Position numbers and translations under genes: made by a program
In this document: positions 5,695-37,808 of the stretch, piece by piece
How the letters are laid out: every line of letters begins with the position of its first letter
Position numbering within the stretch: position 1 is the stretch's first letter
Assembly: GCA_945788575.1 (NCBI GenBank)
Contig: CALZMR010000008.1
Location: forward strand, 3,135-41,249
DNA from: an uncultured Woeseiaceae bacterium
Lineage (GTDB): Bacteria; Pseudomonadota; Gammaproteobacteria; Steroidobacterales; Woeseiaceae
Length of the DNA: 38,115 nt
Direction of reading: 5' to 3'
Notes under the pieces: model-generated
What the model was told of the DNA's origin: nothing
Databases searched by the model: none
What the model saw: only the letters and a program-made list of their open reading frames with translations

Positions 5695-6630
5695 ATGGCC
5701 GTCGCCAGCCGAAGGTCAGTGGAAGTGAACAGCCCAACAAACGAGATTTCGCCACACATCCTGGCTGGATTCCTGTCGAAACACAGCCTCCCGGCAGCAT
5801 TCGAGGCAAGCGCCAGACGGTTCTACGAGCCGCTCGCCCGTCGACTGCCGAGCTTGCGGCGCACAGAGTTTCCACTCTTGCTGGGGGTCAACGGTGCGCA
5901 AGGAACCGGCAAATCGACACTCGCGGATTTCCTTGCGATGGCGGTTGCCGAGTTGTTCGATTGGCGCTCCGCCGTTCTGTCGATCGATGACTTTTACTTG
6001 CCTCGGGATGAACGCCTCCAGCTCGCGCAGACCGTGCACCCGTTGTTCGCAACCCGTGGCGTGCCGGGTACTCACGATACCGAGCTCATCCAGACAACAC
6101 TCGACGAACTAACTTCGTTGGGTACCGGACACAGCGCGGTGCTGCCGCGCTTCGACAAGGCCGTTGACGATCGAGCACCGAAGGACGAGTGGCCGTCGGT
6201 TACCGGGCCGCTGGATCTTATTGTTCTGGAAGGTTGGTGCGTGGGTAGTTCCGCTGAGACGGAGGCGGCGCTGGCGGAACCGGCCAATGTTCTCGAGCGC
6301 GATGAGGACGCCGAAATGCGGTGGCGCGGCTACGCGAATGAGCGATTGCGAGAGCGGTACGAGCCGATATTCTCCGGTCTCGACGCGCTCGTCTTTCTCG
6401 CCGCGCCGTCGTTCGAGGCAATTCTTCGATGGCGCATCGAACAGGAGCACAAGCTGGCACAGAAAGCGGCCGATCCCGGCTCACGCGTCATGAGCGATGA
6501 CGAAGTCGCTCGATTCGTTCGCTTCTACGAACGCATCACCCGGCACAACCTCATCGACATCCCGACTCGGGCCGACGTGGTCTTCACGCTCGGCGAAGAT
6601 CACGGCGTCACCGAGGCCCGATACCGTTGA
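5695..6630 (+). CDS. P-loop kinase, D-glycerate 3-kinase family
   Basis: The product (311 residues from the ATG at 5695) carries a Walker A loop GAQGTGKS at residues 67-74, then SIDDFYLP, the pair HPLFATRGVPGTHD, LPRFDKA, and a Walker B-like IVLEGW. This set is typical of the plant GLYK / yeast YGR205W / bacterial glycerate-kinase group of the P-loop NTPases, which phosphorylate D-glycerate to 3-phosphoglycerate with ATP. The protein looks cytosolic and full length. The start is uncertain: the frame is open from GTG 5647, which lies in AT-rich, promoter-like sequence, while ATG 5695 and GTG 5725 (with GAAGG 9 bases upstream) are better placed. Phosphoribulokinase- or uridine kinase-like substrates cannot be excluded from sequence alone. 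No metabolic partner is adjacent. Confidence 0.82.
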   Translation: MAVASRRSVEVNSPTNEISPHILAGFLSKHSLPAAFEASARRFYEPLARRLPSLRRTEFPLLLGVNGAQGTGKSTLADFLAMAVAELFDWRSAVLSIDDFYLPRDERLQLAQTVHPLFATRGVPGTHDTELIQTTLDELTSLGTGHSAVLPRFDKAVDDRAPKDEWPSVTGPLDLIVLEGWCVGSSAETEAALAEPANVLERDEDAEMRWRGYANERLRERYEPIFSGLDALVFLAAPSFEAILRWRIEQEHKLAQKAADPGSRVMSDDEVARFVRFYERITRHNLIDIPTRADVVFTLGEDHGVTEARYR

Positions 6631-6659
6631 CCGAATTTCTAATGCAGTGATGTTTGCTG

Positions 6660-7268
6660 TTACTTGATCAGTCCCTGTTCCTTCATCGCTCGCCTGACGC
6701 CGTCGTTTTGCTCCCAACGCTCGAGATAAGCACTCAGGTTCGGATACTCCTTGAGCGGCCTGGTCAATAGCCGGCCCCAGCGGAGCATCGGAATCGCGTA
6801 CGCATCGACGATGCTGCGGCGGTTGCCGGCGATGAACTCGCGGCCGTCGAGGTGCTTCTCGAGATGATCGAAGTATTTCGCGACGAGTGCCTGTCCCGCG
6901 TCCTTTGCGTCATCGATGCCATCCGGTTCCACCGTGTAGCGTTGCGGATTGAAGAACGGGAAGAACGCCGGATGCAGATCGCCGGTCAGGAACGCCATCC
7001 AGTTGTTGATCTCGTACTCAGAGTCAGGAGTGCCGTCGCCCGCCAGGTTCGCGTCCGGATTCGACGCGGCGAGCCAGTGCAGGATCGCATCCGCCTGGGT
7101 ATACAGCTTGCCGCCCTGTTCTATCGCAGGCACGACGCCGAGCGGATTGACCTTCAGGTACTCGGGATCGCCCTTGACGATACGCACCGGTTCGAACTCC
7201 GCACCTAGCCACTCGAGCACGATGTGCGGCGCCAGCGCGCAGGATCCGGGAAAGTAGTACAGCTTCAT
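6660..7268 (-). CDS. Glutathione S-transferase family protein
   Basis: The 202-residue protein opens with MKLYYFPGSCALAPHI, the thioredoxin-fold start of bacterial beta-class GSTs, with Cys10 in the place of the glutathione-contacting cysteine of that class. A short helix-rich C-terminal domain follows (about 85-202). The family conjugates glutathione to electrophiles or reduces mixed disulfides in the cytosol. The start ATG at 7268 is preceded by AAGGA at a 6-base spacing. It is the second gene after the damaged pirin gene on the same strand (gap about 70 bases), and the LysR gene diverges from that pair. This layout suggests an electrophile- or redox-responsive unit under LysR control, which is inference. 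Confidence 0.9.
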   Translation of the reverse strand: MKLYYFPGSCALAPHIVLEWLGAEFEPVRIVKGDPEYLKVNPLGVVPAIEQGGKLYTQADAILHWLAASNPDANLAGDGTPDSEYEINNWMAFLTGDLHPAFFPFFNPQRYTVEPDGIDDAKDAGQALVAKYFDHLEKHLDGREFIAGNRRSIVDAYAIPMLRWGRLLTRPLKEYPNLSAYLERWEQNDGVRRAMKEQGLIK

Positions 7269-10855: not shown

Positions 10856-12286
10856 TCAGAGTTCAAGCTCGAACTCGACTTCGGTCGCGGTAATTGTCGT
10901 ATCGGCAGATTCAGTGCCTTCCGCCTTCACGAGATCGTTGGCGGCGAGCCGATTGAAAAACTCGGTCGAGGAAATCACCACGTCGTTCTCGTCACGGAAG
11001 ATCGTCAGCGACGGGTCGGATATGGTTTCCACAAAACCCTGCAGAATGGTGTCGGGATCCGGATCCTCGCGCTCGAAGATCGATGCGAGGATCGAGCCGC
11101 TCCCGGCCGGGAATTCGTCGCCGCGAACCTCGACGTAATCGCCTGCGACGATGTCGTTGATCGTTAGTGGTTCGAGCCCGACATTGCTCTTGTCTTCGAG
11201 GCGGGTAATTTCGTCTGTGGTGACGGTAATACCCAGCAGCACCACCGAACCGGCCGCTGCATCCACCGAATCGATCGTCGCCGTGGCTCGTACTGCCTTG
11301 GCTCGGCGGATATCCACTTCCTCCGCAACGAGTACGCCGCTGGCGTTCAGATCGCCCTCGACCTCGACTTTCACGTTTAGACCGAGATCCGTCGCATCGC
11401 CGCCTACGTAGGTCGTACTACCGGTCGTGGTGACCGGAAAGCCCGATACGTCGAAGTCCGTAGCCGATATGAAGCGTGTGATAAAGCCTTCGATCTCGAT
11501 GCGGTCGCCGTCCTGTCCGCCGGCGAGAGCGTTCTCGAGTTCGACGCTGGTCGCGACGAGTTCGCCGGCCGCGCCGAGAGTTGCGCCCTTCGCCTCGACG
11601 AAGTCGTCATTATTGATCTGACCGCCCGGGAAGTTGTCCAGAGTGGCGCCACTGTAGTCCACCACCAATCCGTTGATGTTGAATCGGAAGTTGGCGGAGT
11701 CGAGGCCGCTGACGATTCCGTGTACCTCGAACGGTGTGCCCGCCGGCTTGTCCTCTATCCGCGTCGCCACGATATTGCCATTGGCGTCCGGCAGGCCGCT
11801 GACCTCGACGATGTCTCCAACGGTGAGCCCTTCCAGTGATGCCGGGCTAATGCCGTCATCGAATGAAGTGTCTGCGGTTACGAGGACGGTCTGTCCAAGA
11901 ACCACAAGCGAGCTGCCGGGAATATCGATCGACTCGACAGGGCCTTTGACACTGTCGTCGAAAATGACTTCGTCGGCGGTCCCCGTCGTGCCGTTCGCGT
12001 CCATTGTGCCTTGGACCACCACGACCTGACCAACGCTCAGATCCGACTCGATGCCTGCGGCGTCGTTGATCGTGAAGTTCGCGGACGTCGTTTCGTAGCG
12101 CACACCGTTGACGACGACGCTGCCGAACGTGGAGATCGGCCCGATTGCTATGCCGGTACGTCCGATCCCGCCGGTCGGAGGTGGTGGTGGCGGTGGCGGT
12201 GACACACCACTGTCGCCTCCACCACTGCTGCAAGCGGACATTGTTACTGCTGCGAGAACGCACAGAATTCGGGTGAAATATTTCAT
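10856..12286 (-). CDS. DUF5666 repeat lipoprotein
   Basis: The 476-residue protein has a lipoprotein signal peptide with the acylated Cys at residue 19 (TMSAC followed by SSGGG), a Pro-rich spacer (about 30-37), and then about six tandem beta-rich units of roughly 70 residues. Each unit carries a V-x-G-x-V start, a threonine-rich middle, a V(E)V-x-G element and an ending such as ATRIED or ATSVELE. This is the DUF5666 architecture, known from exported proteins of unknown function and resembling small OB-like barrels. The start ATG at 12286 overlaps the DUF6502 stop by 4 bases (ATGA) and has GGAGGGG just upstream, so the two are translationally coupled. It would sit in the periplasm or on the outer membrane. 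No catalytic residues are evident. Confidence 0.9.
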   Translation of the reverse strand: MKYFTRILCVLAAVTMSACSSGGGDSGVSPPPPPPPPTGGIGRTGIAIGPISTFGSVVVNGVRYETTSANFTINDAAGIESDLSVGQVVVVQGTMDANGTTGTADEVIFDDSVKGPVESIDIPGSSLVVLGQTVLVTADTSFDDGISPASLEGLTVGDIVEVSGLPDANGNIVATRIEDKPAGTPFEVHGIVSGLDSANFRFNINGLVVDYSGATLDNFPGGQINNDDFVEAKGATLGAAGELVATSVELENALAGGQDGDRIEIEGFITRFISATDFDVSGFPVTTTGSTTYVGGDATDLGLNVKVEVEGDLNASGVLVAEEVDIRRAKAVRATATIDSVDAAAGSVVLLGITVTTDEITRLEDKSNVGLEPLTINDIVAGDYVEVRGDEFPAGSGSILASIFEREDPDPDTILQGFVETISDPSLTIFRDENDVVISSTEFFNRLAANDLVKAEGTESADTTITATEVEFELEL

Positions 12287-13107
12287 GATTGTGTCCCCTC
12301 CGGAAGCGACCCGTCGATGGCATAGATGCCAAGCCCGAGCCGAACCGGCGTTACTGAAGAATCGGATTCATCGACGCGGTGCTCGGTGAGCCAGTCGTCG
12401 ATCTCCTCGAGAATTTGTTGCCCGCGGCTGTCCAGAAACGCACGGAACTCCTCGACGGCGTCGGGATGAACTCGATCGTCCACCGCGAAGCCCTCGAGCA
12501 GGCGTTGAGCGGATGCCTCGGTCAGGTTGTTGCAGAGCGTCCGTGCGTGGTCGTGCAGATTCGTGCCGAAGAAACGCACGTTGCCTTCGTCCATCTCGGC
12601 CGGCATGTGATAGCGCCGCAAGGCAACTAAGTGGCCTGCATCGTCGTGGCCGATGGAGCCGGCGTTGCTGAGCTCCCGGACCAGGGTTTGTTCTGGCGTG
12701 TCGCCGCCGTAAGCTTGGAAAAGACTCTCGAAACTCGGCGCCGGTCCGGACGACTTCAATGGCAGAGGAGCGCCGCCCTTGTCGAGATAGGCTGAATCCT
12801 GATGCCACCCAGACAAGAGACGGGTGGCGTCCGTGGTCTTCGATGAAGTCGGCGGCTGATCGGCCGCCAGAAGATCCCGCTGTCTCTTCACTTCCTTTCT
12901 CGAGATTCCGGTAAGGATCGATACTCTTGACACGTTCGTAGGCCGCCCACGGATCCCAAATTCATCAGTGGCGACCGCTACAAAGACCGATTTCGAGATT
13001 TCCGCGAACTCCTTCCACGTCATCCCGCCCTTCATCAGCAGGAGGGCGATCGGGCGCAGCAGCGTCCGGCAGGCATTCAGTAGCGCGTTTTTGATCTTCT
13101 CAGTCAT
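12283..13107 (-). CDS. DUF6502 family protein, probable DNA-binding
   Basis: This 274-residue cytosolic protein matches the DUF6502 family. Its N-terminal 80 residues (CRTLLRPIALLLMKGGMTWK, then AEISKSVFVAVA and a segment ending ILTGISRKEVKRQRDLL) look like a winged helix-turn-helix. A linker follows, and then a C-terminal helical domain (about 150-250) that contains the family sequence ATLCNNLTEAS-like NLTEASAQRLL. It is the first gene of a two-gene operon with the DUF5666 lipoprotein, an arrangement I recall as common for these two families. No Shine-Dalgarno sequence precedes ATG 13107, consistent with a leaderless start from the promoter described separately. A self-regulating role through the promoter palindrome is inference; no function is established. 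Confidence 0.88.
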   Translation of the reverse strand: MTEKIKNALLNACRTLLRPIALLLMKGGMTWKEFAEISKSVFVAVATDEFGIRGRPTNVSRVSILTGISRKEVKRQRDLLAADQPPTSSKTTDATRLLSGWHQDSAYLDKGGAPLPLKSSGPAPSFESLFQAYGGDTPEQTLVRELSNAGSIGHDDAGHLVALRRYHMPAEMDEGNVRFFGTNLHDHARTLCNNLTEASAQRLLEGFAVDDRVHPDAVEEFRAFLDSRGQQILEEIDDWLTEHRVDESDSSVTPVRLGLGIYAIDGSLPEGTQS

Positions 13108-13109
13108 TG

Positions 13110-13144
13110 TTGGGGTACTTTACCCCAATATTGGACGATGTCAA
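13110..13144 (-). promoter_or_regulatory. DUF6502 operon promoter overlapped by two palindromes
   Basis: On the minus strand a consensus -35 box TTGACA (13144-13139) is followed after 16 bases by TAAAGT (13122-13117), a 4/6 match to the -10 box. The predicted transcript start (about 13109-13111) is only 2-4 bases before the ATG at 13107. The palindrome TTGGGGTA-CTT-TACCCCAA (13110-13128) covers the -10 box and a second perfect palindrome CCAATATTGG (13125-13134) lies in the spacer. This is a typical repressor-operator position. Confidence 0.62.
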
Positions 13145-13219
13145 GCACAATTGCGACGGAATGCTCAATCCTGGCCACTCAGGGTCGCTTCGGGCCCGTG
13201 GCCGTGGAATGATTGCGCC

Positions 13220-14830
13220 ATGTCCGGAATGATCCGACTGATAATCCTCGCTCTGCTGATCCCGGTTGGCCTGAGCGGCTGTAGCTGCTCCGACCAGTCG
13301 AATTCGGCCGACGGCGAAGGCGCGCAGCAGGTATTGCGGCGCGGAAACGGTGCCGAACCGCAGACCCTCGACCCGGCACGGGCCGACGACTTTCACTCCT
13401 TCCACATACTCGCCGACGTCTACGAGGGCCTGATTGCGTCCGCGGCGGACGGCAGCCTGATACCAGGCGTGGCTGAAGACTGGGACATCAGCGACGACGG
13501 CAGGACTATGCGATTCACGCTGCGCGAAGATGCGCGCTGGTCGAACGGCGACGCGGTCGTTGCAGGCGACTTCGTTCGCGCCATTCGCCGGGTCGTCGAT
13601 CCGGCCACAGGGGCCCCCTATGGAACGCTGCTGGAGCCCATCGAGAACTTCGGCGCCGTTCGGTCCGGAGGCGCCGAGAATTCGGAGCTTGGTGTGCAGG
13701 CTATTGACGAGCGTACGCTCGAGATCAGACTCGATCAGCCGACCGGCCATTTCATGTCGATACTGGCGATGGCGGTCGCCTACCCGATCCACTCGTCAGT
13801 GACAGCGGACACATTGGGTGACCCGGACACCTTTGTCGGTAATGGCGCCTATGTACTGGTGGCGCGGCAGACACTCGGCTCGATTCGTCTGCGGCGCAAT
13901 GAATTCTACTGGGACGCTGAAAACGTATCGATCCCGGAGATCGAATTCCTGCCGATAGAAGATGAGACGTCGGAGATGAACATGTATCTCGCCGGCGAAC
14001 TGGACATCACGTATACGATTCCGCCGGCGAGCTTCGGCACGCTGAGGCAGACAATCTCCGACGAGGTTCGCGTAGCTCCGAGACTCGCCTTCTATTACAT
14101 GGCGTTCGACCTGACTCAACCGCCGCTGGACAATCCTGCGCTGCGCCGCGCGCTGTCGATGGCCGCCGACCGGCGCCAGCTCGTCGAAGTGATCGGTCGA
14201 GGAGAACCACCCGCATACGGATTCGTGCCGACCGGCGTTGCCAATCACGTAGCCGCGCCCTACGAATGGCAGTCGCTGAGCGACGACGACCGGATTGCGC
14301 GCGCCAGAGAAGCGTATGCGCAAGCCGGATACAGCGATGAGAATCCTCTGACCCTCAAGCTCACCTACGACGCCGGCAGTATTCACGAGACCATCGCTGT
14401 CGCCGTGAGCGGCATGTGGCAAGACGCGCTGGGCGTCGAGATCGAACTCGATAAGCGGGAGTTCCGCTGGATGCTGGACATCCGTGACCAGCGCGACGAA
14501 TGGGACATCATGCGATTCGCGTGGCTCGGCGATTACAACGACCCGATGACCTTCCTCGAGATCTTCCGCTCCGACAGCCCGCAGAACCTCTCCCGGTACG
14601 CCAACAACGACTTTGACGAATTGCTCGACCAAGCGCTCGTCGAACTCGATTCGGCTCGCCGGCTCGAGTTGCTGACGGAAGCCGAGCAGCTGGTTTTGAG
14701 CGGCTACCCGGTCGCGCCGATGTACTATTTCGTTTCCAAGCACCTTGTCAGCCCGAATGTCGGCGGTTTCGAAGACAACTCGCTCGATCGTCATCCGAGC
14801 CGCTTCCTTACGCTCGACGCCCGCGACTGA
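13220..14830 (+). CDS. Peptide ABC transporter substrate-binding lipoprotein (OppA-like)
   Basis: The 536-residue product is a family 5 extracellular solute-binding protein. The signature lies near residues 42-56 (LRRGNGAEPQTLDPARA) and the fold continues through SFHILADVYEGL, the GSLIPGVAEDWDISDDG region and the C-terminal PVAPMYYFVSKHLVSPNV. It is anchored through Cys21 of the lipobox LSGC. The start ATG at 13220 gives a compact signal peptide; ATG 13229 is an alternative three codons later. Such proteins bind oligopeptides (OppA, MppA) in the periplasm and deliver them to an ABC permease. No permease or ATPase gene is next to it, so it must use one encoded elsewhere. It is divergent from the DUF6502 operon. 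Confidence 0.9.
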   Translation: MSGMIRLIILALLIPVGLSGCSCSDQSNSADGEGAQQVLRRGNGAEPQTLDPARADDFHSFHILADVYEGLIASAADGSLIPGVAEDWDISDDGRTMRFTLREDARWSNGDAVVAGDFVRAIRRVVDPATGAPYGTLLEPIENFGAVRSGGAENSELGVQAIDERTLEIRLDQPTGHFMSILAMAVAYPIHSSVTADTLGDPDTFVGNGAYVLVARQTLGSIRLRRNEFYWDAENVSIPEIEFLPIEDETSEMNMYLAGELDITYTIPPASFGTLRQTISDEVRVAPRLAFYYMAFDLTQPPLDNPALRRALSMAADRRQLVEVIGRGEPPAYGFVPTGVANHVAAPYEWQSLSDDDRIARAREAYAQAGYSDENPLTLKLTYDAGSIHETIAVAVSGMWQDALGVEIELDKREFRWMLDIRDQRDEWDIMRFAWLGDYNDPMTFLEIFRSDSPQNLSRYANNDFDELLDQALVELDSARRLELLTEAEQLVLSGYPVAPMYYFVSKHLVSPNVGGFEDNSLDRHPSRFLTLDARD

Positions 14831-14939: not shown

Positions 14940-15965
14940 ATGGCGCATCGAATATTCACAGAAGAGTACGACGCGATTCGCAAGATCCTGAAGACCGAGA
15001 GCTTCTCGTCCGACGCCGCCGCGCAGCGGCTCATCGCCAGCCTTCGCAGCGTGGTCGCGACCGACGGCCCGAACAAATCTCAGGGCCGGGCGCTCGATGA
15101 CCTGCGGGATCAATGCGAGCGTGGCCTGTTGAACAAGGTATTCGGCTCTCGGAAAGAAAAAGAGGCCGAGGGCATACTCGCGCTGGCCGGCGACGACACC
15201 CGTCTGGCGAAGAAGGCCGCCGCATTGAAGGCACTTCGGCACTTCTATCTGATGACGAAATTCGGCGGCCACAGCCTGTGGGTCAATTCGCTGCCCGCGC
15301 ACTACCGTAAGTGGACGACCGAGCAGTTGGGCGGAATCTCGAACAAGGACCAGCTCAAGACCGAACTCAAGAAGATCGAAGGCCGATTCTCTTCGCAGCA
15401 GATGCGTGATCTGGTCAGCTGCAGTCAAACTGCGGCCGCCTGGGCGAATCGCACCCACGGAATGTGCAGCAAGACGTCCGGGCTCGGAGCCCTCCGGGTG
15501 GATCGACTCATCCGTCGCTGGTTCGCCGACGAAGACACGACCGACGCCGACATCAAATCGATGCGTGCAACGTTGCGCGAGGGATTCAAGAAGATCGCGA
15601 CCGCAGCGTTGTCGGGCAAGATGGTGTTCACGGACAACCCGATCGACCGCGGTACGGCAGACGAGAACAACTTCGCGTACGTCTGGTACGACCGGCTCAA
15701 CGTGGTCTACATCGAGGGCCAGTTCTTCAAGCCCGGCCTGTTCAGTGGTCCCCGGCACTGGGCGCTGATCGTGGTTCACGAGCTTTCGCATTCCCAGTGC
15801 AACACAGTGGACGTGCCGGGCCACTACGATTTCGACGGCATCAAGCCGAAACGAGGCACGTTCCCGTCGTCCAAGGCCATCACCAACGCCGACAACTGGG
15901 CGTGGTTTTCGGCTGACTGCAACTTCGCGTTGACGCAGAAGAATCGTGACGACGCGCTCAAGTAG
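14940..15965 (+). CDS. M35/aspzincin (lysine-specific endopeptidase-like) metallopeptidase
   Basis: The 341-residue protein has an N-terminal helical domain (about 1-225) and a C-terminal zinc peptidase core. Zinc ligands are His280 and His284 in HELSH, with Glu281 as base, and Asp291 in NTVD, 11 residues after the first His, as expected for the GTxD element of the aspzincin clan. The downstream NADNWAWFSADC (316-327) matches the family NADSYAYF motif. In the tetrad YVWYD (247-251) and several Cys the domain also looks typical. Fungal relatives are secreted, but this protein has no signal peptide from ATG 14940, which is the start with AAGGA upstream. A cytosolic role or export by a non-Sec route is possible. 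It overlaps the following lipoprotein ORF by 20 bases. Confidence 0.8.
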   Translation: MAHRIFTEEYDAIRKILKTESFSSDAAAQRLIASLRSVVATDGPNKSQGRALDDLRDQCERGLLNKVFGSRKEKEAEGILALAGDDTRLAKKAAALKALRHFYLMTKFGGHSLWVNSLPAHYRKWTTEQLGGISNKDQLKTELKKIEGRFSSQQMRDLVSCSQTAAAWANRTHGMCSKTSGLGALRVDRLIRRWFADEDTTDADIKSMRATLREGFKKIATAALSGKMVFTDNPIDRGTADENNFAYVWYDRLNVVYIEGQFFKPGLFSGPRHWALIVVHELSHSQCNTVDVPGHYDFDGIKPKRGTFPSSKAITNADNWAWFSADCNFALTQKNRDDALK

Positions 15966-16458
15966 ATCGAGAACGACGCCTGCGGCGACAGGGACGAAGT
16001 GTCTGTTGCCATTAACTCTGGCCGCGCTAAGCTTGGCGGCCTGCGAGATGACCGGGCCGGCTGCCCTGGAAGACGACGGGCCGCTGGCCGAGGAGACGAA
16101 TGACATGACCGAGGAATTTCCGCCGCCCAGATCTTCGAAACGTCCTGCCCCGCCCGAGATCGAACCGGTCGTTATCGGCGACGTTCGATACGAGCAGGTC
16201 CGCAACGCGCTGGACCTGGGCTTCGATCAGCTGACCGGCTACCTCCGTGCACGCGATGCCGGCACCGGCGAGGATCTGTGGGTACGCCAGGTCTATGCCG
16301 TCGTCATCGACGAATCCAAGGAACGCGACGTCCAGGAAGTGTACTTCGCCAGCATGACTGCAGGTGGCGATGGCGCGTCGCTGATCATCGAGAACGAACG
16401 CGGCGAGCGGTTCTCGGTCGACGCCGGAACCGGCGAATCCACGCCACTGAGCGAGTAA
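15946..16458 (+). CDS. Small lipoprotein of unknown function, overlapping the M35 peptidase gene
   Basis: The 170-residue product starts with GTG at 15946, within the last codons of the peptidase gene (20-base overlap in another frame). An Arg-rich N-region is followed by a hydrophobic stretch and the lipobox ALSLAAC with Cys33, then a Pro/acidic spacer (about 36-72), and a compact C-terminal domain (about 73-165) that I do not recognise. The domain begins VVIGDVRYEQVRNAL and includes LWVRQVYAVVID. Without this start the n-region would lack positive charge, so GTG 15946 is preferred over TTG 16006. The overlap suggests co-expression with the metallopeptidase, possibly as a partner or inhibitor; that is inference. 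Confidence 0.72.
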   Translation: MTTRSSRSRTTPAATGTKCLLPLTLAALSLAACEMTGPAALEDDGPLAEETNDMTEEFPPPRSSKRPAPPEIEPVVIGDVRYEQVRNALDLGFDQLTGYLRARDAGTGEDLWVRQVYAVVIDESKERDVQEVYFASMTAGGDGASLIIENERGERFSVDAGTGESTPLSE

Positions 16459-16470
16459 CCGCTGGCACCT

Positions 16471-16491
16471 TGGCGCCGATTGTCGGCGCCA
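16471..16491. terminator. Hairpin after the M35-lipoprotein pair
   Basis: A perfect 9-bp stem TGGCGCCGA / TCGGCGCCA with a 3-base loop lies 13 bases after the lipoprotein stop and 45 bases before the pirin start. It has no T run on either strand, so it may be a weak or factor-dependent terminator, an mRNA-stabilising hairpin, or a symmetric operator for the pirin gene. Confidence 0.45.
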
Positions 16492-16536
16492 GGATGATTG
16501 CATATCATCGGCGGCCGTTGTTCAGGTGAGGCTGTC

Positions 16537-20416: not shown

Positions 20417-20815
20417 ATGAGACTAGCAAGAGCATATCTCGCCACACTTGTCGTGTTTATAGTGGTTGACCTCATTTGGATTGCGTTTGTCGTGATAGGT
20501 ATGTACGAACGCGAGATCGGCCAGATGCTTCTGGACTCACCAAACGGGGCGACGGCCGCCGTCTTCTACCTTGGTTACATCGCAGGCGTGTTGCTGCTGG
20601 CGAGCGTCCCGGCAATCGACAAGCGCTCGTGGAAGACCGCCGCCATCAACGGAGCGGTCCTCGGCGCTATCGCCTACGGCACCTACACCGTCACCAACTA
20701 CACGGTGCTGACAGGCTGGACGATGACGCTGGTCGTCACCGATATTGTCTGGGGCGCGTTCATCACCGCGCTTTGCGGTGTCGTGGGTTACGTCGCGGCG
20801 CGGCCTGCCATGTGA
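20417..20815 (+). CDS. DUF2177 family membrane protein
   Basis: The 132-residue product has four predicted membrane helices (about 5-28, 46-64, 76-98 and 105-127). It carries the DUF2177 features LIWIAFV in helix 1, [10 protein letters not shown] in helix 2, and [19 protein letters not shown] in helix 3. The function of the family is unknown. ATG 20417 lies 65 bases from the divergent gdhA start. Its 3' end overlaps the end of xylA by 28 bases in convergent orientation. No partner gene is apparent. Confidence 0.87.
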
Positions 20816-22140
20816 TCGTTGATCAGGTTCTCGACGAGTTCCTGCTTGCCACTTAGCTGCGTGGGCTCGGCCGACGCAGCGGCGATGTCGCGCAGCTCGG
20901 CGAGACCCAGCTCCCCATCCTCGAAGCGCTTGCCGTCGCCGGAGTCGAAGCTCGCATAGCGATTCTTCAACATGTCGCTCAACCGCGGGTCCGAACGAAT
21001 GCTGTCGGCGATCACCAGGCCTCTGGCGAAGGAATCCATGCCGCCGATGTGGGCGATGAACATGTCCTCCAGGTCCGTCGACTCTCGGCGTACTTTCGCA
21101 TCGAAATTCAGCCCCCCGGGCTGCAGACCGCCGGCTTCTAGTATGACCATCATGCCGTGCACGCAGTCGTAGAGATGTAGCGGGAACTGGTCCGTGTCCC
21201 AGCCGTTCTGAGGGTCGCCTCGATTGGCGTCGACCGATCCGAGTAAGCCGGCGTCGGCCGCCATTCGCAGATCGTGCGCGAAGCTGTGGCCTGCGAGGGT
21301 CGCGTGGTTGGCCTCGATGTTGAGCTTGAAGTCGCCGGCGAGACCGTGGTGACGCAGGAAGCCGATAACGGTCTGCGCGTCGAAGTCGTACTGATGCTTC
21401 ATCGGCTCCATCGGCTTCGGCTCGATCAGGAACGTGCCCTCGAAGCCGATCGAGCGTCCGTAGTCGCGAGCCTTCTCGAGGAACGTCGCCATATGCTCGA
21501 GTTCGCGGCGGGTATCGGTGTTCTGCAGGCAGACGTAGCCCTCGCGACCGCCCCAGAACACGTAGCTCTCGCCGCCAAGCTCGACCGTTGCGTCGAGTGC
21601 CGCCTTGACCTGTGCGGCCGCCCAGGTGACGACCTCGAAGTTGGGATTGGTCGACGCGCCGTTCATGAATCGTGGATTCGAAAACATATTGGCGGTGCCC
21701 CAGAGCAGACGCATTCCCGTTTCCGCCTGGCGCTCCTTCGCGAGATCCACCATCGCTTTGAGATTGTTCTCCGATTCCGCGACGGAGGCGCCTTCGCTCG
21801 CCAGATCGAAGTCGTGGAAACACCAGAACGGGACATTGAGCTTGGTGAAGAACTCGAATGCCGCGTCTGCCCGATCTCGCGAACGATCCATCGCATCCGC
21901 GGCCCGGGCCCAGGCATGATTCCGGGTGCCCGGACCGAACGGGTCGGCACCGCTTGCACAGAACGTGTGCCAGTAACAGACGGCGAATCGAAGATGCTCT
22001 TCCATCGTCTTTCCCGCCACGACTCGATTAGGGTCGTAGCTCTTGAATGCGAGCGGGTTATCGGACTCCGGACCTTCGTACTCAATCTGGCTGATGCCGG
22101 GGAAGTACTCGGTGTCACCGATGAAGACTTTGCGACTCAT
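20788..22140 (-). CDS. xylA: Xylose isomerase
   Basis: The 450-residue product has the XylA catalytic set: His58 in WHTF, followed by ADPFG; His109-Asp110 in CFHDFD; the metal-binding Glu240 and Lys242 in IEPKPMEP; Glu276 and His279 in [11 protein letters not shown]; and Asp304 in SVDANRGD. It converts D-xylose to D-xylulose with divalent metal, in the cytosol. The length is normal for the group II type (about 440). It is the last gene of a xynB-xylB-xylA operon, 24 bases after xylB. The start ATG is at 22140. Its 3' end overlaps the convergent DUF2177 gene by 28 bases, so it reads without room for a terminator. Confidence 0.97.
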
Positions 22141-22164
22141 GTTCTTGCCTCGAACGTTCTGAAT

Positions 22165-23646
22165 CTAATAATAAAGAGAAGTGACGGCGGCGACAGCCTG
22201 CTGGTAGCGCTCATAATGATCGGCGTAATTCGTGACCGCCGTGGAGCGGGGTTCGCAGCAGCGCTCATCGTCACGGGTGAGAACGGCGTCCGTGATTTCT
22301 GATATCTCGGAAGCCGGCTCCAGAATCTGCAGCGCCTGCATCGCGGCGCCGAGTGCTGCGCCCTCGTCCTGTTCGTAGACGGTAACCGGCGAGTTACAGA
22401 TGTCGGCCACGAGTTGCCGCCATTTGTCGCTCTTCACCCCGCCGCCGGTCAATACGATCTCGCTTGCCTCAACCCCTAATCCGGCAAGCTCGTCGATGCC
22501 GAACTTCAGTGCGTAGGTCGCGCCTTCGACGGCAGACCGCAGAAAGTTTTCCGGCTGCATGTTCCGGCCGTTCAGACCCAGGATACAGCCACGCGCGTTC
22601 GGCAGATTCGGCGTTCGCTCTCCATTGAAGAACGGCAGCGTCAGTACACCGTCCGCGCCTCGTGGCGCATTACTGATCTGCGTCTCGAAGCTCGCGAGGT
22701 CGGTGCCGAGCAGACCGCGCATCAACTCTGTCGTCACCGTGCAATTCATCGTGCAGAGAAGTGGCAGCCATCCATCGGTCGACGCGCAGAAAGCCGCGAT
22801 ATTGCCTTTCGGGTCGATGATCGGCTCGTCCGAATAGGCGTATACCGTCCCGGACGTTCCGAGGCTCATGGTCATATTACCGGGCCGAACGTTGCCGGTG
22901 CCGATGGCGCCCATCATGTTGTCACCGCCACCGATCGCGACCGGTATGCCCACCGGCAGGCCCAGTTCCTCTGCGACCTCTGCTCTTACCTTGCCAATCG
23001 CCTCGTTGCGAACGCGCAACGCCGGCAGGCACTCAGCAAGGTCGCGATCCGGGTCCACGGCCCGAAGCATCTTTCCTGACCAACATCGCTCGCGCACGTC
23101 GAGCAGGCCAGTGCCGGAGGCATCACCGGCCTCCATGCAGCGCTCACCCGTTATATAGAGATTGAGAAAATCGTGCGGCAGGAGAATGCAGTCGAGCTTC
23201 TCGTACAGGCGAGGATGCGCCGACTTCAGCCACCGGATCTTGGGCGCCGTGTAGCCCGGCAGAATCGGATTGCCGGCTGCTCGAATGCAGGCATCGAAGC
23301 CGCCAACGGCCTGCATGATCTCGTCGCATTCCTTGCCGGTCGAGGTATCGCACCAGAGCTTGACCGGCGCGAGGACTTCGCCGGCGTCATCGAGCGCAAC
23401 GAATCCGTGCTGCTGACCGGAAATAGAGAGCGCTTTCGCGTCCCTTCGCACATCCGGATCGACCTTCGCGAGCGCTTCTTTCAGTGCCGTAAGCCACCAG
23501 TGATGCTGCTGTTCCGCTACGCCGCCGTCATCCTGATACAGATCCAGCGGCGCTGACTCGGAGGCAAGGATTCCGCCGCCGGCGGCGTCGAGAAACACGA
23601 CCTTCAGTCCCTGTGTGCCCAGATCGATGCCGACCACGCTGTTCAT
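22165..23646 (-). CDS. xylB: Xylulokinase
   Basis: The 493-residue FGGY-family kinase begins VVGIDLGTQGLKVV (phosphate loop), has SGQQHGFVALD with the family Gln-Gln-His motif, the substrate region around GYTAPKIRWLK, and the nucleotide-binding GGGDNMMGAIGTG and LTGGGVKSDKWRQL motifs. It phosphorylates D-xylulose to xylulose 5-phosphate, which enters the pentose phosphate pathway. It is 26 bases downstream of xynB and 24 bases upstream of xylA, all on the minus strand, so the three are probably one transcript. The length matches E. coli XylB (484). Confidence 0.96.
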   Translation of the reverse strand: MNSVVGIDLGTQGLKVVFLDAAGGGILASESAPLDLYQDDGGVAEQQHHWWLTALKEALAKVDPDVRRDAKALSISGQQHGFVALDDAGEVLAPVKLWCDTSTGKECDEIMQAVGGFDACIRAAGNPILPGYTAPKIRWLKSAHPRLYEKLDCILLPHDFLNLYITGERCMEAGDASGTGLLDVRERCWSGKMLRAVDPDRDLAECLPALRVRNEAIGKVRAEVAEELGLPVGIPVAIGGGDNMMGAIGTGNVRPGNMTMSLGTSGTVYAYSDEPIIDPKGNIAAFCASTDGWLPLLCTMNCTVTTELMRGLLGTDLASFETQISNAPRGADGVLTLPFFNGERTPNLPNARGCILGLNGRNMQPENFLRSAVEGATYALKFGIDELAGLGVEASEIVLTGGGVKSDKWRQLVADICNSPVTVYEQDEGAALGAAMQALQILEPASEISEITDAVLTRDDERCCEPRSTAVTNYADHYERYQQAVAAVTSLYY

Positions 23647-23672
23647 TTGTGCGCCTCACTTTGCATAAGGAT

Positions 23673-25280
23673 TCACTTCGCTGGCCGAACGGCGAGACAA
23701 TCGAAGTCGGCACAGGCCCGCCGACCGCTCACGTCATGCGCGCAGACGCCGATGAAGGTCCCGGTGAACTGCTCGCCACCCTCGACTCCCGCCTGGTCGG
23801 TCAGAAACCGAACGTCCAATTCCGCCGGAATCGAGTTCCATTCACCGGCGTCACCGAGCGCCCATGAACAGCGCAGCACGTCGCAATCGACGTCGAAGCG
23901 CAACCGCAGACGCTGGCCCTTCGGAACCGGTACGCGAGCGTCGTCGATCGGATAACGCGTCTTCAAGCTGAAGTCGGCCTCGCAGCTCATGATGCTGATG
24001 TGCTTACCGATCTCGTCGTCCGTGGATGCGTACAAGTAGTGGAATTTGCTGGAGTTGTAGTAAAGGATCAGGCCCGCCATCTGCTGGAAGCTGACCGGGT
24101 CGAACTCCAGCGAAGTCTCCGCATGAAAGACCGCTTCCGTCTGACGGCGCGCGATCAATGCCTGCGTGTACCGGCTGCCCGGCGACTCCATGCCGTACAG
24201 ACGCAGGAACCCCGGTCTTTCGCTGAGTGTGTAGAAGCGTTCCGGCGACGGCGTTCGGAGCCACTGATACACCGCATTGAGTTCGGCAGCATCGAAGTCG
24301 TCGTGCTCGATCTCTGGCTCGACGTCGAAGGCCGGCAGGTCCGGCGCGTCGATCTCCACTCGAGGCAGCGCATCGCCCCACGGCAATCGCAGCCAGCCAT
24401 CCGAGGTCAGTTCGACGGGCTGGATCGCCGTCTCCCTGCCCATCGGGCTGTGCCGTGACTCGCCAAAGTGACGGCTGACCAGAAGAACGATATACAGGCT
24501 GCCATCCTCGAGCTGCACGATGTCGCCATGACCCGCTCGCTGCAGCGGCCAGTCGGGGTCGTCTCGTGCCGTTACCAGCGGTCCGTTGGGATCGGCTTGG
24601 TACGGTCCGTGCAGTGACTCCGATCGAGCGACGGTGACCGCGTGACCGTAGCCCGTGCCGCCTTCGGCCGTGATCAGATAGTAGTAATCGCCGAGCCGAT
24701 GTATGTGCGGACCTTCGGTGTAATCGAGCTCGGTCCCTGAAAATATTCTCTCCGGCTCGCCGATGAGACGCTGCCTGTCCGCGTCATACTCCTGCATGAC
24801 AATGCCGTTGAAGAAGCTTCTATCCGGACGATGGTCCCAGACCATGCTGAGAAACCACTTGCGTCCATCGTCAGCGTGGAAGATCGACGGGTCGAAGCCG
24901 GCCGAATTCAGATACACCGGATCCGTCCACGGACCGTCGATACTCGGCGCGGTCGTCACGTAGTTGTGGGTGTCCTTGAAGTTGCCGTCGAATCGCCGGA
25001 CGTCGGTGAATACCAGCCAGAACCGACCGTCTGACCAGGTGAGACACGGCGCCCACACGCCGCAGGAGTCGGGTTCGCCTTCCATGTTCAACAGGCGCGC
25101 CTCATTGAGCGGCCTCCCAATAAGCCGCCAGTTCTTCAAGTCCCGGGAGTGATGGATCTGGACGCCCGGATACCATTCGAACGTCGACGTCGCGATGTAG
25201 AAATCGTCGCCGACACGACAGATCGACGGGTCGGGATTGAATCCGCGCAGTATCGGATTGACTATCTTGCCGTCTGTCAT
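23673..25280 (-). CDS. xynB: Glycoside hydrolase family 43 beta-xylosidase
   Basis: The 535-residue product has a five-bladed propeller (about 1-310) with the GH43 residues Asp17 in FNPDPSI (base), Asp130 in GFDPSIF (pKa modulator) and Glu189 in TEGPHI (acid), then a C-terminal beta-sandwich (about 330-530) of the type that closes the pocket in GH43 beta-xylosidases. It lacks a signal peptide, so it is probably cytosolic and splits imported xylobiose and short xylo-oligosaccharides to xylose. A minor alpha-L-arabinofuranosidase activity is common in the family. It is the first gene of the xynB-xylB-xylA operon and its promoter must lie in the 175 bases shared with the divergent dioxygenase gene. 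Confidence 0.93.
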   Translation of the reverse strand: MTDGKIVNPILRGFNPDPSICRVGDDFYIATSTFEWYPGVQIHHSRDLKNWRLIGRPLNEARLLNMEGEPDSCGVWAPCLTWSDGRFWLVFTDVRRFDGNFKDTHNYVTTAPSIDGPWTDPVYLNSAGFDPSIFHADDGRKWFLSMVWDHRPDRSFFNGIVMQEYDADRQRLIGEPERIFSGTELDYTEGPHIHRLGDYYYLITAEGGTGYGHAVTVARSESLHGPYQADPNGPLVTARDDPDWPLQRAGHGDIVQLEDGSLYIVLLVSRHFGESRHSPMGRETAIQPVELTSDGWLRLPWGDALPRVEIDAPDLPAFDVEPEIEHDDFDAAELNAVYQWLRTPSPERFYTLSERPGFLRLYGMESPGSRYTQALIARRQTEAVFHAETSLEFDPVSFQQMAGLILYYNSSKFHYLYASTDDEIGKHISIMSCEADFSLKTRYPIDDARVPVPKGQRLRLRFDVDCDVLRCSWALGDAGEWNSIPAELDVRFLTDQAGVEGGEQFTGTFIGVCAHDVSGRRACADFDCLAVRPAK

Positions 25281-25455
25281 ACGCGAGTCGCTATGTGCTT
25301 TCTTTTCTATCCGCCAGAGGCGATCTTATACGCCTGATGAGCGGACCGCGCGATGCGAGTCGGGAAACGAGCCTTTCGTCCTCGAACGCTACACCGAACA
25401 GGCGCGACTGTGTAACCATTACGCGAGTCTGACCGCGAGTACCAGCGATACGCCT

Positions 25456-26160
25456 ATGAACACCTCTGACCTGGCACGACAATTCTGGCGAGACGGCTAT
25501 CTCGTCCTCGAGGACTTCTTCGAGAACAATGTGATGGACGAACTCGACGGTCTTATCCAGACGCACTTCGGGGCGAACCCGGATTTCCAGCATACCGACG
25601 AGTTCCTGACCGAGTCGCAAACGGATGTCATCCCCTGGTTTCCGCAGAACGAGGGCCCTTGTGCGTTCGACACACTCGACGAGCACGACGGCCTGAAGGC
25701 GCTGACCACCAAGGTGCTGGGCGACGGCTGGAAACGCGATTACTGCATGGTCATGTTCTCGAAGCAGGGTACGTCGGGGCAAGCGTGGCATCAGGACTGC
25801 CCGCCAGACGACCCCTCGCAGCACAATCTCAATCGACTCGTTTACACGAGCGACATTACGGACGAAATTGGCGGCCAGACGGTTGTGGTTCCCGGGTCCT
25901 TTCGGAGAGGCGTTCTGCCGGCAGGCGATCCAACCGGCCACTTCCCCGGCGAGGTCGTTTTGAAACCGACGAAGGGCACATTGGTGCTGTTACACGGCCA
26001 CACCTGGCACCGGGTTCTGCCGATCACCGGCGCCTTCCGCTTCTCGACGAACTATCGGGCGGCACCGAAGGACACGCGCGAAGGAATTACCGACGTGTGC
26101 GTCTACCGGAACATGCGCTATCGGTTTTCGACCTCGAGCGTTATCGAGAAGCGCGTCTGA
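25456..26160 (+). CDS. Phytanoyl-CoA dioxygenase (PhyH) family protein
   Basis: The 234-residue product is a Fe(II)/2-oxoglutarate-dependent oxygenase of the PhyH type. The metal motif is His112-x-Asp114 in WHQDC with the distal His185 in HTWHRVLP, and the Arg195 that would bind 2-oxoglutarate is 10 residues later. The start region (SDLARQFWRDGYLVLEDFF) is typical of PhyH. The start ATG 25456 matches this; the longer frame to 25237 reads through the divergent xynB region without homology. The substrate is unknown; related enzymes hydroxylate lipids, ectoine, or other small molecules. Its stop abuts the Gfo/Idh gene end with no gap (26160/26161, convergent). It lies between the two xylose units, but I see no evidence of a link. 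Confidence 0.88.
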   Translation: MNTSDLARQFWRDGYLVLEDFFENNVMDELDGLIQTHFGANPDFQHTDEFLTESQTDVIPWFPQNEGPCAFDTLDEHDGLKALTTKVLGDGWKRDYCMVMFSKQGTSGQAWHQDCPPDDPSQHNLNRLVYTSDITDEIGGQTVVVPGSFRRGVLPAGDPTGHFPGEVVLKPTKGTLVLLHGHTWHRVLPITGAFRFSTNYRAAPKDTREGITDVCVYRNMRYRFSTSSVIEKRV

Positions 26161-27120
26161 TCAGAACTCGGCGCGTATCGACTCCATCGTGCGCTGAAAC
26201 TCGATGCTGTCGTTCAACGATACGATCGACGACTCGGTCTTACCGGCCAGCAGATCGTCGACCACCGCCTGGGTTTCGAAATTCAGTCCGATCGATTCGC
26301 GACCGTCCTCGAACTTGTCCTTCAGCGTATCGAGCTCATAGAGCCGGCACTCTGGGGCGCGCCAGAAATCGGGAATGGCAATGTAGCCATCTTCGCCGAT
26401 GAGGTAGGCCCAGTTCTGCAGCTTGCAGCGGAACGAAGTGCCTATGGTCGCGACGACGTCTCCATAATCCAGAATCGCGTTGACGTCGTCCTCGACGCCG
26501 TTCGGCGCGTGGCGCGAAACCACGTGCAAAGCCTCTGGCTGCCGCCGCATCAGGAGCCAAGACAGCGCAACCGGATAAATGCCCATCTCGAGCAGGACAC
26601 CGCCGCCGAGACGCGCGTCGTAGACACGCATGTCTGGCGAGTACGGCCGCTTTGGGAAGCCAAAATCCACCTTGATCTGCTCGAGCCGCCCGATTCGGCC
26701 GGCTTCGATCCACTCCAACGCGGTGCGGATCGCCGGCAGAAACCAGGTCCACATCGCCTCCATGACGTACACGGAGGAATCCCTCGCGGCCTGCGCAATC
26801 CGCTCGGCATCTGCCGTACAGGTCGTAATAGGCTTCTCGCACAGCACGGCCTTGCCCGCTGCCACCGCGGCCAGTGAGTTCTCGAGGTGAACGGTATGTG
26901 GAGTGGCGACGTATACCGCGTCGATGTCCCCGTCCGCCAGCAGCGCCTCGACGGTCGCATAGACGGTCTCGACCTTGTGTTCTTCCGCGAAAGCCTGTGC
27001 GTTCGTCACAGTGCGCGAGGTTGCGGCGACGATCCTGCCGCCCTCTACGTGCGCCATATCCTGTGCGAACTGGTGCGCGATTCGACCCGTACTGATGACG
27101 CCCCAGCGAATCCCGCTCAT
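26161..27120 (-). CDS. Gfo/Idh/MocA family oxidoreductase, D-xylose 1-dehydrogenase-like
   Basis: The 319-residue product has an N-terminal Rossmann fold (GVISTGRIAHQFAQDM, nucleotide loop at about 7-15), the signature EKPI (95-98), and the C-terminal GGGVLLEMGIYPVALSW (172-188). This pattern is closest to the dimeric dihydrodiol dehydrogenase / NADP-dependent D-xylose 1-dehydrogenase group. It would oxidise xylose to xylonolactone in the cytosol, but other sugars are possible. ATG 27120 is chosen since it overlaps the sugar porter stop by 4 bases (ATGA, 27117-27120), showing coupled translation. That pairing with an XylE-like porter supports a sugar substrate. Confidence 0.86.
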   Translation of the reverse strand: MSGIRWGVISTGRIAHQFAQDMAHVEGGRIVAATSRTVTNAQAFAEEHKVETVYATVEALLADGDIDAVYVATPHTVHLENSLAAVAAGKAVLCEKPITTCTADAERIAQAARDSSVYVMEAMWTWFLPAIRTALEWIEAGRIGRLEQIKVDFGFPKRPYSPDMRVYDARLGGGVLLEMGIYPVALSWLLMRRQPEALHVVSRHAPNGVEDDVNAILDYGDVVATIGTSFRCKLQNWAYLIGEDGYIAIPDFWRAPECRLYELDTLKDKFEDGRESIGLNFETQAVVDDLLAGKTESSIVSLNDSIEFQRTMESIRAEF

Positions 27121-28679
27121 CTCGCGAGTACCGTTTCGAGTTCTTCGAGCGTCTTGCCCTTGGTCTCCGGAAGCATCCAGTTGAGGGCGATCAGCCCGAC
27201 GACCCCTAACCCTGCGTATATGAAAAACGTCATCGCATTGCCGAGATTGGCCAGCTCCCATGGCAGCAGAAACTGGACGACCCAACTCGAGCCGCTATTG
27301 AAGATGCCGGTCACACCGAGCGCGACGCCGCGAATGCGATTCGGGAAGATCTCCGACAGGAGCACCCACACTACGGGGCCGAGTGACATCGCGAACGACG
27401 CGACGAAACCGAGAATTCCGATCAGGACGATCGTCGGATTGACTTCGATCGCCGCTTTGACGAGGTCCGCCTGATGGTCTCGTGCCTCTTGCGGTCCGAG
27501 CACGCGCTCCAGTTCCCGCTTGAATTGCAGATCGTTGTCGAAGCGAACGTCAACGAGAGACTCGAGGCTCTCCCTGTCGATCGACTCGTCAAACTGTTCG
27601 ACCGAAGCCGCGTCCAGCCGATAGGTAGCCTGCTGAAAGCCGTAGCCAGTGATACTCATACTCACGATGATGCCGAGCAGGCCCACGATCAGGAGCGGCC
27701 GTCGCCCGATCCTGTCGATCAGGAGCATGGCGACGATCGTGAAGACGACATTGACGATGCCGACCATTGTCGCCTGCGCGAATGCGGCGTCGGTGCCGAC
27801 ACCGCTCTGCTCGAAAATCGTTGGCGCATAGAACAGAACTGCGTTGATCCCGGTGACCTGCTGCACGATACCGATGACGATAGCGATCAGAATTGCCAAA
27901 CGGACCTTGGGTGACAAGACCTCGCGCAGGCGGTAGATAAGCGACCTCCCTGCGTCGCTGCCGCTGGCGAGGATCTCGTTGAGCGTCGCCTCAACGCGAT
28001 CCGCGGGACGGAAGCGGGCGAGCACGGACTTCGCCTGCTCGGTCCGCCCGTTCATCGCCAGCCAGCGGGGCGTCTCGGGAATCGCCAGCATCATCATCAG
28101 CCAGAGGCCGGCCGGCAGAATCTCGATGCCGAGCATCCAGCGCCAGGCGTATTCATCGATGCCGAGCGACTGCACCCATGCGGCGCCGCTGCCACTCAAC
28201 TGCAGCACGTAGTAGTTCGCGAAATAGGCGGCCGAAAAGCCGATCACGATGTTGAACTGATTGAACGAGACGAGGAATCCGCGCCGCTCGTGCGGCGCGA
28301 TCTCCGCGATATACATCGGCGCAATACCCAGCGACGCGAACGCGAATCCGCCGAGGGCTCGCGCGATCATGAGGGTCTCGTAATTCGGCGCGAACGCGGA
28401 GCCGATGGCCGAGATCGTGTACAGCGCGGCGAGGATCGTCAGTACTTTCTTACGTCCGATGTAGTCCGCGATCGGCCCGGCACTAATTCCCGCGACGATG
28501 CCCGCGAGAGTCGGCGCGCCGACGAGAAACCCGAGGTCTATTTCGCTCAGCGAGAATTCGGGAACGATGAATGTCTGGATGCCTGAAATTACCGACGCGT
28601 CGAAACCGAAGATGAAGCCGCCGAGCGCAACGAAAGCCGCGACATAAACGGTGCTTACCGGGTTATATGAATTACTCAT
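27117..28679 (-). CDS. XylE-like sugar:proton symporter (MFS sugar porter)
   Basis: The 520-residue protein is a 12-helix major facilitator of the sugar porter family: GGFIFGFDASVISG in helix 1, the loop ADYIGRKK, PETPRWL after helix 6, QQVTGINAVLFYAP in helix 7 (sugar-binding residues), DRIGRRPL, and PETKGKTLEELE at the C-terminus. The helix 7 to loop 8-9 region is very close to E. coli XylE. It would import D-xylose with protons. It differs from XylE by about 65 extra residues (about 350-413) between helices 9 and 10, rich in acidic residues and Arg. The next gene overlaps its stop by 4 bases. Glucose or arabinose as substrate is possible. Confidence 0.9.
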   Translation of the reverse strand: MSNSYNPVSTVYVAAFVALGGFIFGFDASVISGIQTFIVPEFSLSEIDLGFLVGAPTLAGIVAGISAGPIADYIGRKKVLTILAALYTISAIGSAFAPNYETLMIARALGGFAFASLGIAPMYIAEIAPHERRGFLVSFNQFNIVIGFSAAYFANYYVLQLSGSGAAWVQSLGIDEYAWRWMLGIEILPAGLWLMMMLAIPETPRWLAMNGRTEQAKSVLARFRPADRVEATLNEILASGSDAGRSLIYRLREVLSPKVRLAILIAIVIGIVQQVTGINAVLFYAPTIFEQSGVGTDAAFAQATMVGIVNVVFTIVAMLLIDRIGRRPLLIVGLLGIIVSMSITGYGFQQATYRLDAASVEQFDESIDRESLESLVDVRFDNDLQFKRELERVLGPQEARDHQADLVKAAIEVNPTIVLIGILGFVASFAMSLGPVVWVLLSEIFPNRIRGVALGVTGIFNSGSSWVVQFLLPWELANLGNAMTFFIYAGLGVVGLIALNWMLPETKGKTLEELETVLAR

Positions 28680-36890: not shown

Positions 36891-36897
36891 AACGGTT

Positions 36898-37808
<911 letters not shown>

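What the first reader, a model, noticed from the sequence alone, without database searches (positions are those of the whole stretch)
14940..16458. Signal-less M35 metallopeptidase overlapping a small lipoprotein gene
Aspzincin peptidases are usually secreted. This one keeps all zinc ligands but has a long N-terminal helical domain and no signal peptide, and its 3' end overlaps by 20 bases an ORF for an unrecognised lipoprotein. The pair could be a protease with its cognate envelope partner or inhibitor, similar in layout to effector-immunity pairs. This is the best candidate here for an undescribed two-gene system.
Basis: inference. Interest (0 to 1): 0.62.

Follow-up and report, generated by a model that had tools for sequence, protein, structure and literature searches.

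The report
Likely type VI protease toxin–antidote pair
Two overlapping genes most likely encode a protein-cutting toxin that this bacterium injects into rival bacteria, and the envelope-anchored antidote that keeps it from poisoning itself and its kin; the pairing looks like a metallopeptidase toxin family not described for this injection machine in the papers I could search.

Summary
In detail: a 341-aa M35 (aspzincin) peptidase without a signal peptide (14940-15965) overlaps by 20 bases a 170-aa predicted lipoprotein (15946-16458). All four full-length relatives of the peptidase that I found (34-37% identity, including the N-terminal region) are immediately followed by homologues of the lipoprotein. 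All four also lie inside type VI secretion (T6SS) gene clusters, directly after TssM–TagF or beside TssH. The window's own genome has a T6SS on other contigs; only 3 of 73 genomes of its genus do. Among 369 genomes of the class, the lipoprotein family was found only where the peptidase is. Ordinary secreted M35 enzymes lack the N-terminal region and the partner. The peptidase model matches aspzincins (AsaP1, deuterolysin). The partner is modelled as a two-blade beta-propeller fragment on a long tether, reminiscent of the immunity protein Tsi1. Best reading: a T6SS cargo effector acting in the target's envelope, plus an envelope-anchored immunity lipoprotein. It works like the known Tpe–Tpi (VgrG2b–PA0261) pairs but uses a different zincin family. 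Delivery, toxicity and inhibition are inferred, not shown.

The parts
14940..15965 (+). M35/aspzincin metallopeptidase without signal peptide, 341 aa; proposed T6SS cargo effector
   Evidence: PF14521 E=4e-19; full-length relatives in T6SS clusters; model matches AsaP1 Z 13.1, deuterolysin Z 11.3, GfMEP Z 10.9
14940..15269 (+). Region for residues 1-110: extra N-terminal domain, helical in a low-confidence model, shared by all five T6SS-type members and absent from secreted M35; possible loading domain (function inferred)
   Evidence: alignment A5; controls; model pLDDT about 40-76 here; no Pfam match
15777..15812 (+). Zinc-binding and catalytic stretch H280-E281-L-S-H284 ... D291
   Evidence: invariant in five members; HEXXH aligned with Grifola frondosa metalloendopeptidase 1g12
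15946..16458 (+). 170-aa predicted lipoprotein, proposed immunity protein; overlaps the peptidase gene by 20 bases
   Evidence: homologues downstream of every full-length peptidase relative
15946..16044 (+). Signal peptide with lipobox LAAC, Cys33; Glu at +2 suggests outer membrane by the +2 rule
   Evidence: sequence; hydrophobic peak 2.13 at residue 23; localisation by the +2 rule is inference
16045..16152 (+). Acidic, proline-rich tether, residues 34-69, predicted disordered
   Evidence: pLDDT mostly 53-73 and no secondary structure
16153..16455 (+). All-beta domain, residues 70-170: two-blade beta-propeller fragment with TGEDLW motif
   Evidence: pLDDT mostly 92-98, one block 76; best Foldseek match BamB E=8e-4; VIA Z about 9-10 to propellers incl. 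two-blade fragments 2yms and 6r5x
16466..16496 (+). 14-nt inverted repeat just after the lipoprotein stop; possible end of the two-gene transcript
   Evidence: 86% complementary, 3-nt loop; no T-run, not called as terminator; role is inference

Best explanation
The pair is a T6SS effector-immunity module. The peptidase is made in the cytoplasm without a signal peptide and loaded as cargo onto the T6SS of this bacterium, perhaps through its conserved N-terminal ~110 residues. It is injected into neighbouring Gram-negative cells, where its M35 zinc centre cleaves envelope or other proteins. The overlapping gene makes a lipoprotein that is exported and lipid-anchored. Its two-blade propeller domain, on a long flexible tether, binds the peptidase and blocks it, protecting the producer from its siblings. 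Shown: gene structure, family, predicted folds, pairing in every locus found, T6SS linkage of the relatives, presence of a T6SS in the same genome. Inferred: delivery, toxicity, the periplasm as site of action, direct inhibition.
For: 1) All four full-length relatives are in T6SS clusters: L004 follows TssL-TssM-TagF; L007 (G399) is in a cluster with Lipase_3, TssH-like ATPase, TssG, TssF, GPW_gp25 (TssE), ImpE, TssC and ImpA_N (TssA); L017 (G485) is beside a TssH-like gene with TssF and TssC nearby; L018 (G477) comes directly after a TssH-like gene. 2) All five peptidases are followed at about -20 to +30 bases by the same partner family. 3) The partner family is found in no peptidase-lacking genome of 369, apart from one chance-level stretch. 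4) The window's genome carries TssK, TssL, TssM, TssJ, TagH, TssH and VgrG parts, whereas only 3 of 73 genus genomes have TssK. 5) No signal peptide on the peptidase, an export signal on the partner. 6) The pair was not found in 98 relatives, the patchy pattern usual for such modules. 7) Three of the five loci carry tandem partner genes, as many immunity loci do. 8) Partial-propeller immunity has a precedent in Tsi1 (PMC3391265).
Against: In the window the pair is an orphan: no T6SS gene was recognised among the window genes scanned, and the T6SS is on separate contigs. Only five members were found, two of them from one genus. The N-terminal region matches no Pfam domain. No complex, toxicity or secretion data exist. 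The substrate is unknown.
Confidence: 0.83

Rival explanations
1. Same effector-immunity pair, but the peptidase mainly acts in the target's cytoplasm, and the exported partner guards against kin attack only during passage through the periplasm.
For: In L004, L007 and L017 the peptidase is followed first by a partner copy without signal peptide (106-117 aa), then by one with a signal peptide, so some protection or holding in the cytoplasm seems useful.
Against: In the window and apparently in L018 the first downstream partner carries an export signal; in the window genome it is the only copy found. L018 ends at the contig edge.
Confidence: 0.12
2. The partner is an adaptor or lipoprotein accessory that helps the peptidase be exported or activated, not an inhibitor.
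For: Strict pairing and conserved order would also fit; signal-less copies could be loading chaperones.
Against: Every locus has a copy with an export signal, which a loading adaptor would not need; no match to T6SS adaptor families in Pfam.
Confidence: 0.08
3. Housekeeping cytoplasmic protease and an unrelated lipoprotein that are neighbours by accident.
For: In the window alone the two genes sit far from T6SS genes and between a transporter lipoprotein gene and a pirin gene.
Against: Same two families side by side in five loci from several genera; not found in 98 relatives, which is unlike housekeeping.
Confidence: 0.03
4. Effector aimed at eukaryotic cells (such as predatory protists), with the lipoprotein serving some other role.
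For: The M35 relative AsaP1 is titled an extracellular toxic endopeptidase; T6SS effectors can be trans-kingdom (PMC6899460).
Against: A dedicated exported partner gene next to every copy is the mark of antibacterial effectors; anti-eukaryotic effectors need no immunity (general knowledge).
Confidence: 0.05

Closest known systems
Tpe-Tpi family: VgrG2bC-ter-PA0261 and Tpe1-Tpi1 (ACIAD0053-0054)
   Same: T6SS-linked HEXXH metallopeptidase gene followed by a small envelope-targeted (periplasmic, lipoprotein or membrane-anchored) immunity gene; cargo and VgrG/PAAR-fused versions (PMC6899460)
   Different: That family is annotated DUF4157 (PMC6899460); the window protein matches PF14521 and had no DUF4157/eCIS_core hit at E<1. 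PA0261 homologues have partly conserved cysteines; this family has no conserved cysteine in the folded domain. PMC10673891 also labels the VgrG2b domain 'M35', so names overlap.
M35 / PF14521 aspzincins (deuterolysin, GfMEP, AsaP1)
   Same: Catalytic fold and HEXXH...D zinc motif
   Different: The M35 controls L027-L030 are secreted with a signal peptide and, in L027-L029, have another N-terminal domain, with no partner gene in the flanks; the window protein has neither and carries its own N-terminal region
Tse1-Tsi1 effector-immunity pair
   Same: Periplasmic immunity protein with a partial beta-propeller fold (PMC3391265)
   Different: Tse1 is a peptidoglycan hydrolase; Tsi1 has three sheets, this model two blades; no sequence relation tested
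BamB / PQQ-type beta-propellers
   Same: TGE-LW-like motif and blade geometry
   Different: BamB is a complete propeller of >350 aa; this domain is about 100 aa

Membership tests
M35 aspzincin peptidase (PF14521) | Profile match above curated cut-off | tested here: met
   69.8 bits vs 30
M35 aspzincin peptidase (PF14521) | HEXXH plus downstream Asp zinc ligand | tested here: met
   H280, E281, H284, D291 invariant in five members
M35 aspzincin peptidase (PF14521) | Aspzincin fold | tested here: met
   Z 13.1, 11.3, 10.9 to 2x3a, 1eb6, 1g12 over ~150 residues, rmsd 2.7-3.0; next rows at Z 3.5
M35 aspzincin peptidase (PF14521) | Peptidase activity | not testable with these tools
   needs assay
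T6SS effector-immunity pair | Genetic linkage to T6SS | tested here: met
   Four of four relatives in T6SS clusters; in the window's genome T6SS is on other contigs
T6SS effector-immunity pair | Adjacent small partner gene, co-occurring with the effector | tested here: met
   5/5 loci; partner found only in peptidase genomes among 369 apart from one chance-level stretch
T6SS effector-immunity pair | Effector without Sec/Tat signal | tested here: met
   simple hydropathy only; no SignalP available
T6SS effector-immunity pair | T6SS-dependent secretion, toxicity, and neutralisation by the partner | not testable with these tools
   needs experiments
Tpe-Tpi metallopeptidase pairs (VgrG2b/Tpe1) | DUF4157-type metallopeptidase domain | tested here: not met
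   No DUF4157/eCIS_core match at E<1; matches PF14521 instead
Tpe-Tpi metallopeptidase pairs (VgrG2b/Tpe1) | Immunity homologous to PA0261/Tpi1 | not tested
   Those sequences were not fetched; only the published description was compared
Beta-propeller fragment (partner protein) | Four-stranded blades | tested here: met
   Eight strands in residues 75-168 at pLDDT mostly above 90; Z about 9-10 to propellers over 72-92 residues, rmsd 1.5-3.9. Shared fold only
Lipoprotein | Signal peptide and lipobox Cys | tested here: inconclusive
   LAAC at Cys33 with basic n-region seen by eye; the related exported copies lack an obvious lipobox, so lipid anchoring is specific to this member and unproven

The most novel reading that the evidence does not exclude
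A distinct, undescribed T6SS effector-immunity family in which a true M35 aspzincin with its own N-terminal loading domain is neutralised by two-blade beta-propeller fragments. These are often encoded as a tandem of a cytoplasmic and an exported copy that guard two compartments, perhaps by assembling into a ring around the protease.
Probability: 0.3. Interest if true: 0.68.

Novelty: new variant of a known kind. Interest (0 to 1): 0.55.

Why it matters
Proteases are uncommon among characterised antibacterial T6SS effectors (general knowledge), and the best-known metallopeptidase family, Tpe–Tpi, had no directly demonstrated cleavage substrate in the study read here (PMC6899460). A second, unrelated zincin family with a relation to well-studied lysine-specific peptidases would give a tractable enzyme with a guessable cleavage preference. 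The paired cytoplasmic and exported immunity copies make a direct test possible of where self-protection against a protease cargo is needed.

Tried and rejected
Phage or plasmid origin: no match to the peptidase in viral contigs, phages or plasmids. Anti-phage defence: no PADLOC match. Looking for the pair in close relatives: found in none of 98, so no close synteny comparison was possible; downstream of the best transporter-gene relatives other genes stand instead, with no single empty site. Compositional foreignness: GC 0.605 and 0.635 against 0.615 for the window, not informative. VgrG2b family: rejected as membership on Pfam; VgrG2b's solved domain was not listed among structure matches, which by itself decides nothing. 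Sequence search of the partner against the PDB gave only short PQQ-motif matches, explained later by the fold. More Burkholderiales genomes could not be searched from L004.

Full report
Observation. The peptidase runs from ATG 14940 to 15965 (341 aa) and the partner from GTG 15946 to 16458 (170 aa), so they share 20 bases. The peptidase matches Pfam PF14521 (Aspzincin_M35) at 69.8 bits against a cut-off of 30. The partner has no Pfam, PHROGs or PADLOC match and no meaningful NCBIfam match. The peptidase lacks a strongly hydrophobic N-terminus; the partner has a basic n-region, a hydrophobic stretch and a lipobox LAAC. The whole genome holds one M35 gene.

Relatives. Neither gene was found in 98 relatives, about 60 of them from the same genus. 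A scan of species genomes found one full-length relative in a Burkholderiales metagenome-assembled genome, L004. A profile of the two found a third in G399. A search of that genome's family added G485 and G477. Identity of these to the window protein is 34-37% in the five-way alignment, with conserved columns from residue 1 to 341, so the N-terminal region is part of the family. Zinc ligands and the catalytic Glu are invariant.

The partner follows everywhere. L004: peptidase ends 5984, partner 1 at 5999-6319 (no signal peptide), partner 2 at 6316-6759 (signal peptide). G399/L007: the same, 116 and 138 aa. G485/L017: 117 and 134 aa. G477/L018: one exported partner overlapping the peptidase gene by four bases, cut by the contig end. 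Window partner against the L004 copies: 32% over 105 residues, E=6e-19, and 34% over 123 residues, E=1e-21, for single comparisons. A profile of eight partners, run over 369 class genomes, matched only the window genome and G399, plus one 31-residue chance-level stretch in a 509-aa frame. Those two are also the only genomes of that sample with the full-length peptidase. M35 proteins outside this group (L027-L030) start with a signal peptide and, in L027-L029, a different N-terminal domain. None has a partner homologue within the flanks read.

T6SS linkage. In L004 the module directly follows TssL, TssM and TagF. In G399 the cluster reads, back from the module, Lipase_3, a ClpB-like AAA ATPase (TssH), TssG, TssF, GPW_gp25 (TssE), ImpE, TssC and ImpA_N (TssA). 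In G485 the module is next to a TssH-like gene, with TssF and TssC further on. In G477 it directly follows a TssH-like gene. The window's own contig shows no T6SS gene among those scanned, but its genome does. Contig C208 holds a VgrG C-terminal part, DUF6931, TagH, TssJ, TssK, TssL and TssM; contig C111 holds a TssH-like gene, a VipA/VipB-like protein and the VgrG N-terminal part at its very end. The two contig ends may well join inside vgrG (inference). In the genus only 3 of 73 genomes have TssK, and the one genome with the pair is one of these three.

Structure. With five sequences the peptidase model is moderate overall (pLDDT 68), good in the catalytic core. VIA-align gives Z 13.1 to AsaP1, 11.3 to deuterolysin and 10.9 to GfMEP over about 150 residues, and the next rows drop to 3.5. 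The match begins near residue 112, leaving about 110 extra N-terminal residues, modelled as helices at low confidence. The partner's residues 71-170 are modelled mostly above pLDDT 90 as eight strands, and match beta-propellers over two blades (Foldseek best E=8e-4 to BamB; Z about 9-10, including two-blade fragments 2yms and 6r5x). Residues 34-69 are a disordered tether. The two halves share a DAGTGE repeat. The T6SS immunity protein Tsi1 is also a partial propeller (PMC3391265).

Mechanism. The simplest reading is a T6SS cargo effector and its immunity lipoprotein. The partner's export signal and tether place its domain in the periplasm, where kin-delivered peptidase would arrive; this is also how PA0261 and Tpi1 protect (PMC6899460). 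The three loci with an extra signal-less partner copy suggest protection or holding of the protease in the producer's cytoplasm as well; the window lost or never had it. The substrate is unknown. Aspzincins of the GfMEP type cut before lysine (general knowledge), which gives a first assay.

Comparison. The closest working analogue is the Tpe–Tpi group (VgrG2b–PA0261, Tpe1–Tpi1). It fails membership there: that group is DUF4157, the window protein is PF14521 and has no DUF4157/eCIS_core hit (PMC6899460). PMC10673891 calls the VgrG2b domain 'M35', so a text search for M35 in T6SS finds VgrG2b and not this family. Searches of the open library for aspzincin or PF14521 together with T6SS found nothing; subscription papers and preprints are not covered, so novelty is provisional.

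Limits. Five members, two from one genus; no complex prediction was available; signal peptides were judged by eye and hydropathy; everything about delivery, toxicity and inhibition is inferred.

Noticed in passing
L026:432-1982 (G576, contig C8): A 516-aa protein joins an eCIS core domain (PF13699), a peptidoglycan-binding domain and a C-terminal M35 aspzincin: M35 may also be a cargo toxin of extracellular contractile injection systems.
   Followed up: partly
L004:5999-6759, L007:707-1470, L017:714-1468: Tandem immunity-like genes, first without and then with a signal peptide, overlapping by four bases: possible two-compartment protection.
   Followed up: partly
L010:5818-7203 (G000 contig C111): A 461-aa protein matches both VipA and VipB (T6SS sheath small and large subunits) in one chain, beside TPR-methyltransferase genes, a TssH-like gene and VgrG; an unusual fused or divergent sheath protein. 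No canonical TssC was found in this genome.
   Followed up: no
L010:8774 and L014:1: VgrG N-terminal part ends contig C111 and a VgrG C-terminal part begins contig C208: the two contigs probably adjoin in one T6SS cluster.
   Followed up: no
window 10856-14830: DUF5666 protein, DUF6502 protein and a peptide-binding transporter protein (SBP_bac_5) stay together in many genomes of the genus, in varying orientation.
   Followed up: partly
window 12968-13220: The SBP_bac_5 ORF as listed overlaps the divergent DUF6502 gene; its real start is probably the ATG near 13220, which gives a lipoprotein signal (MSGMIRLIILALLIPVGLSGCSC).
   Followed up: no
L007:2748-3917: A Lipase_3 protein with a hydrophobic C-terminus sits between the TssH-like gene and the peptidase in the G399 T6SS cluster; possibly a second (lipase) effector.
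   Followed up: no
window 20788-28679 and 34240-37452: A likely pentose use cluster (TIM-barrel isomerase-like, FGGY kinase, GH43, sugar transporter, MocA-type oxidoreductase) and a kynurenine-pathway cluster (kynureninase, 3-HAO, FAD monooxygenase).
   Followed up: no
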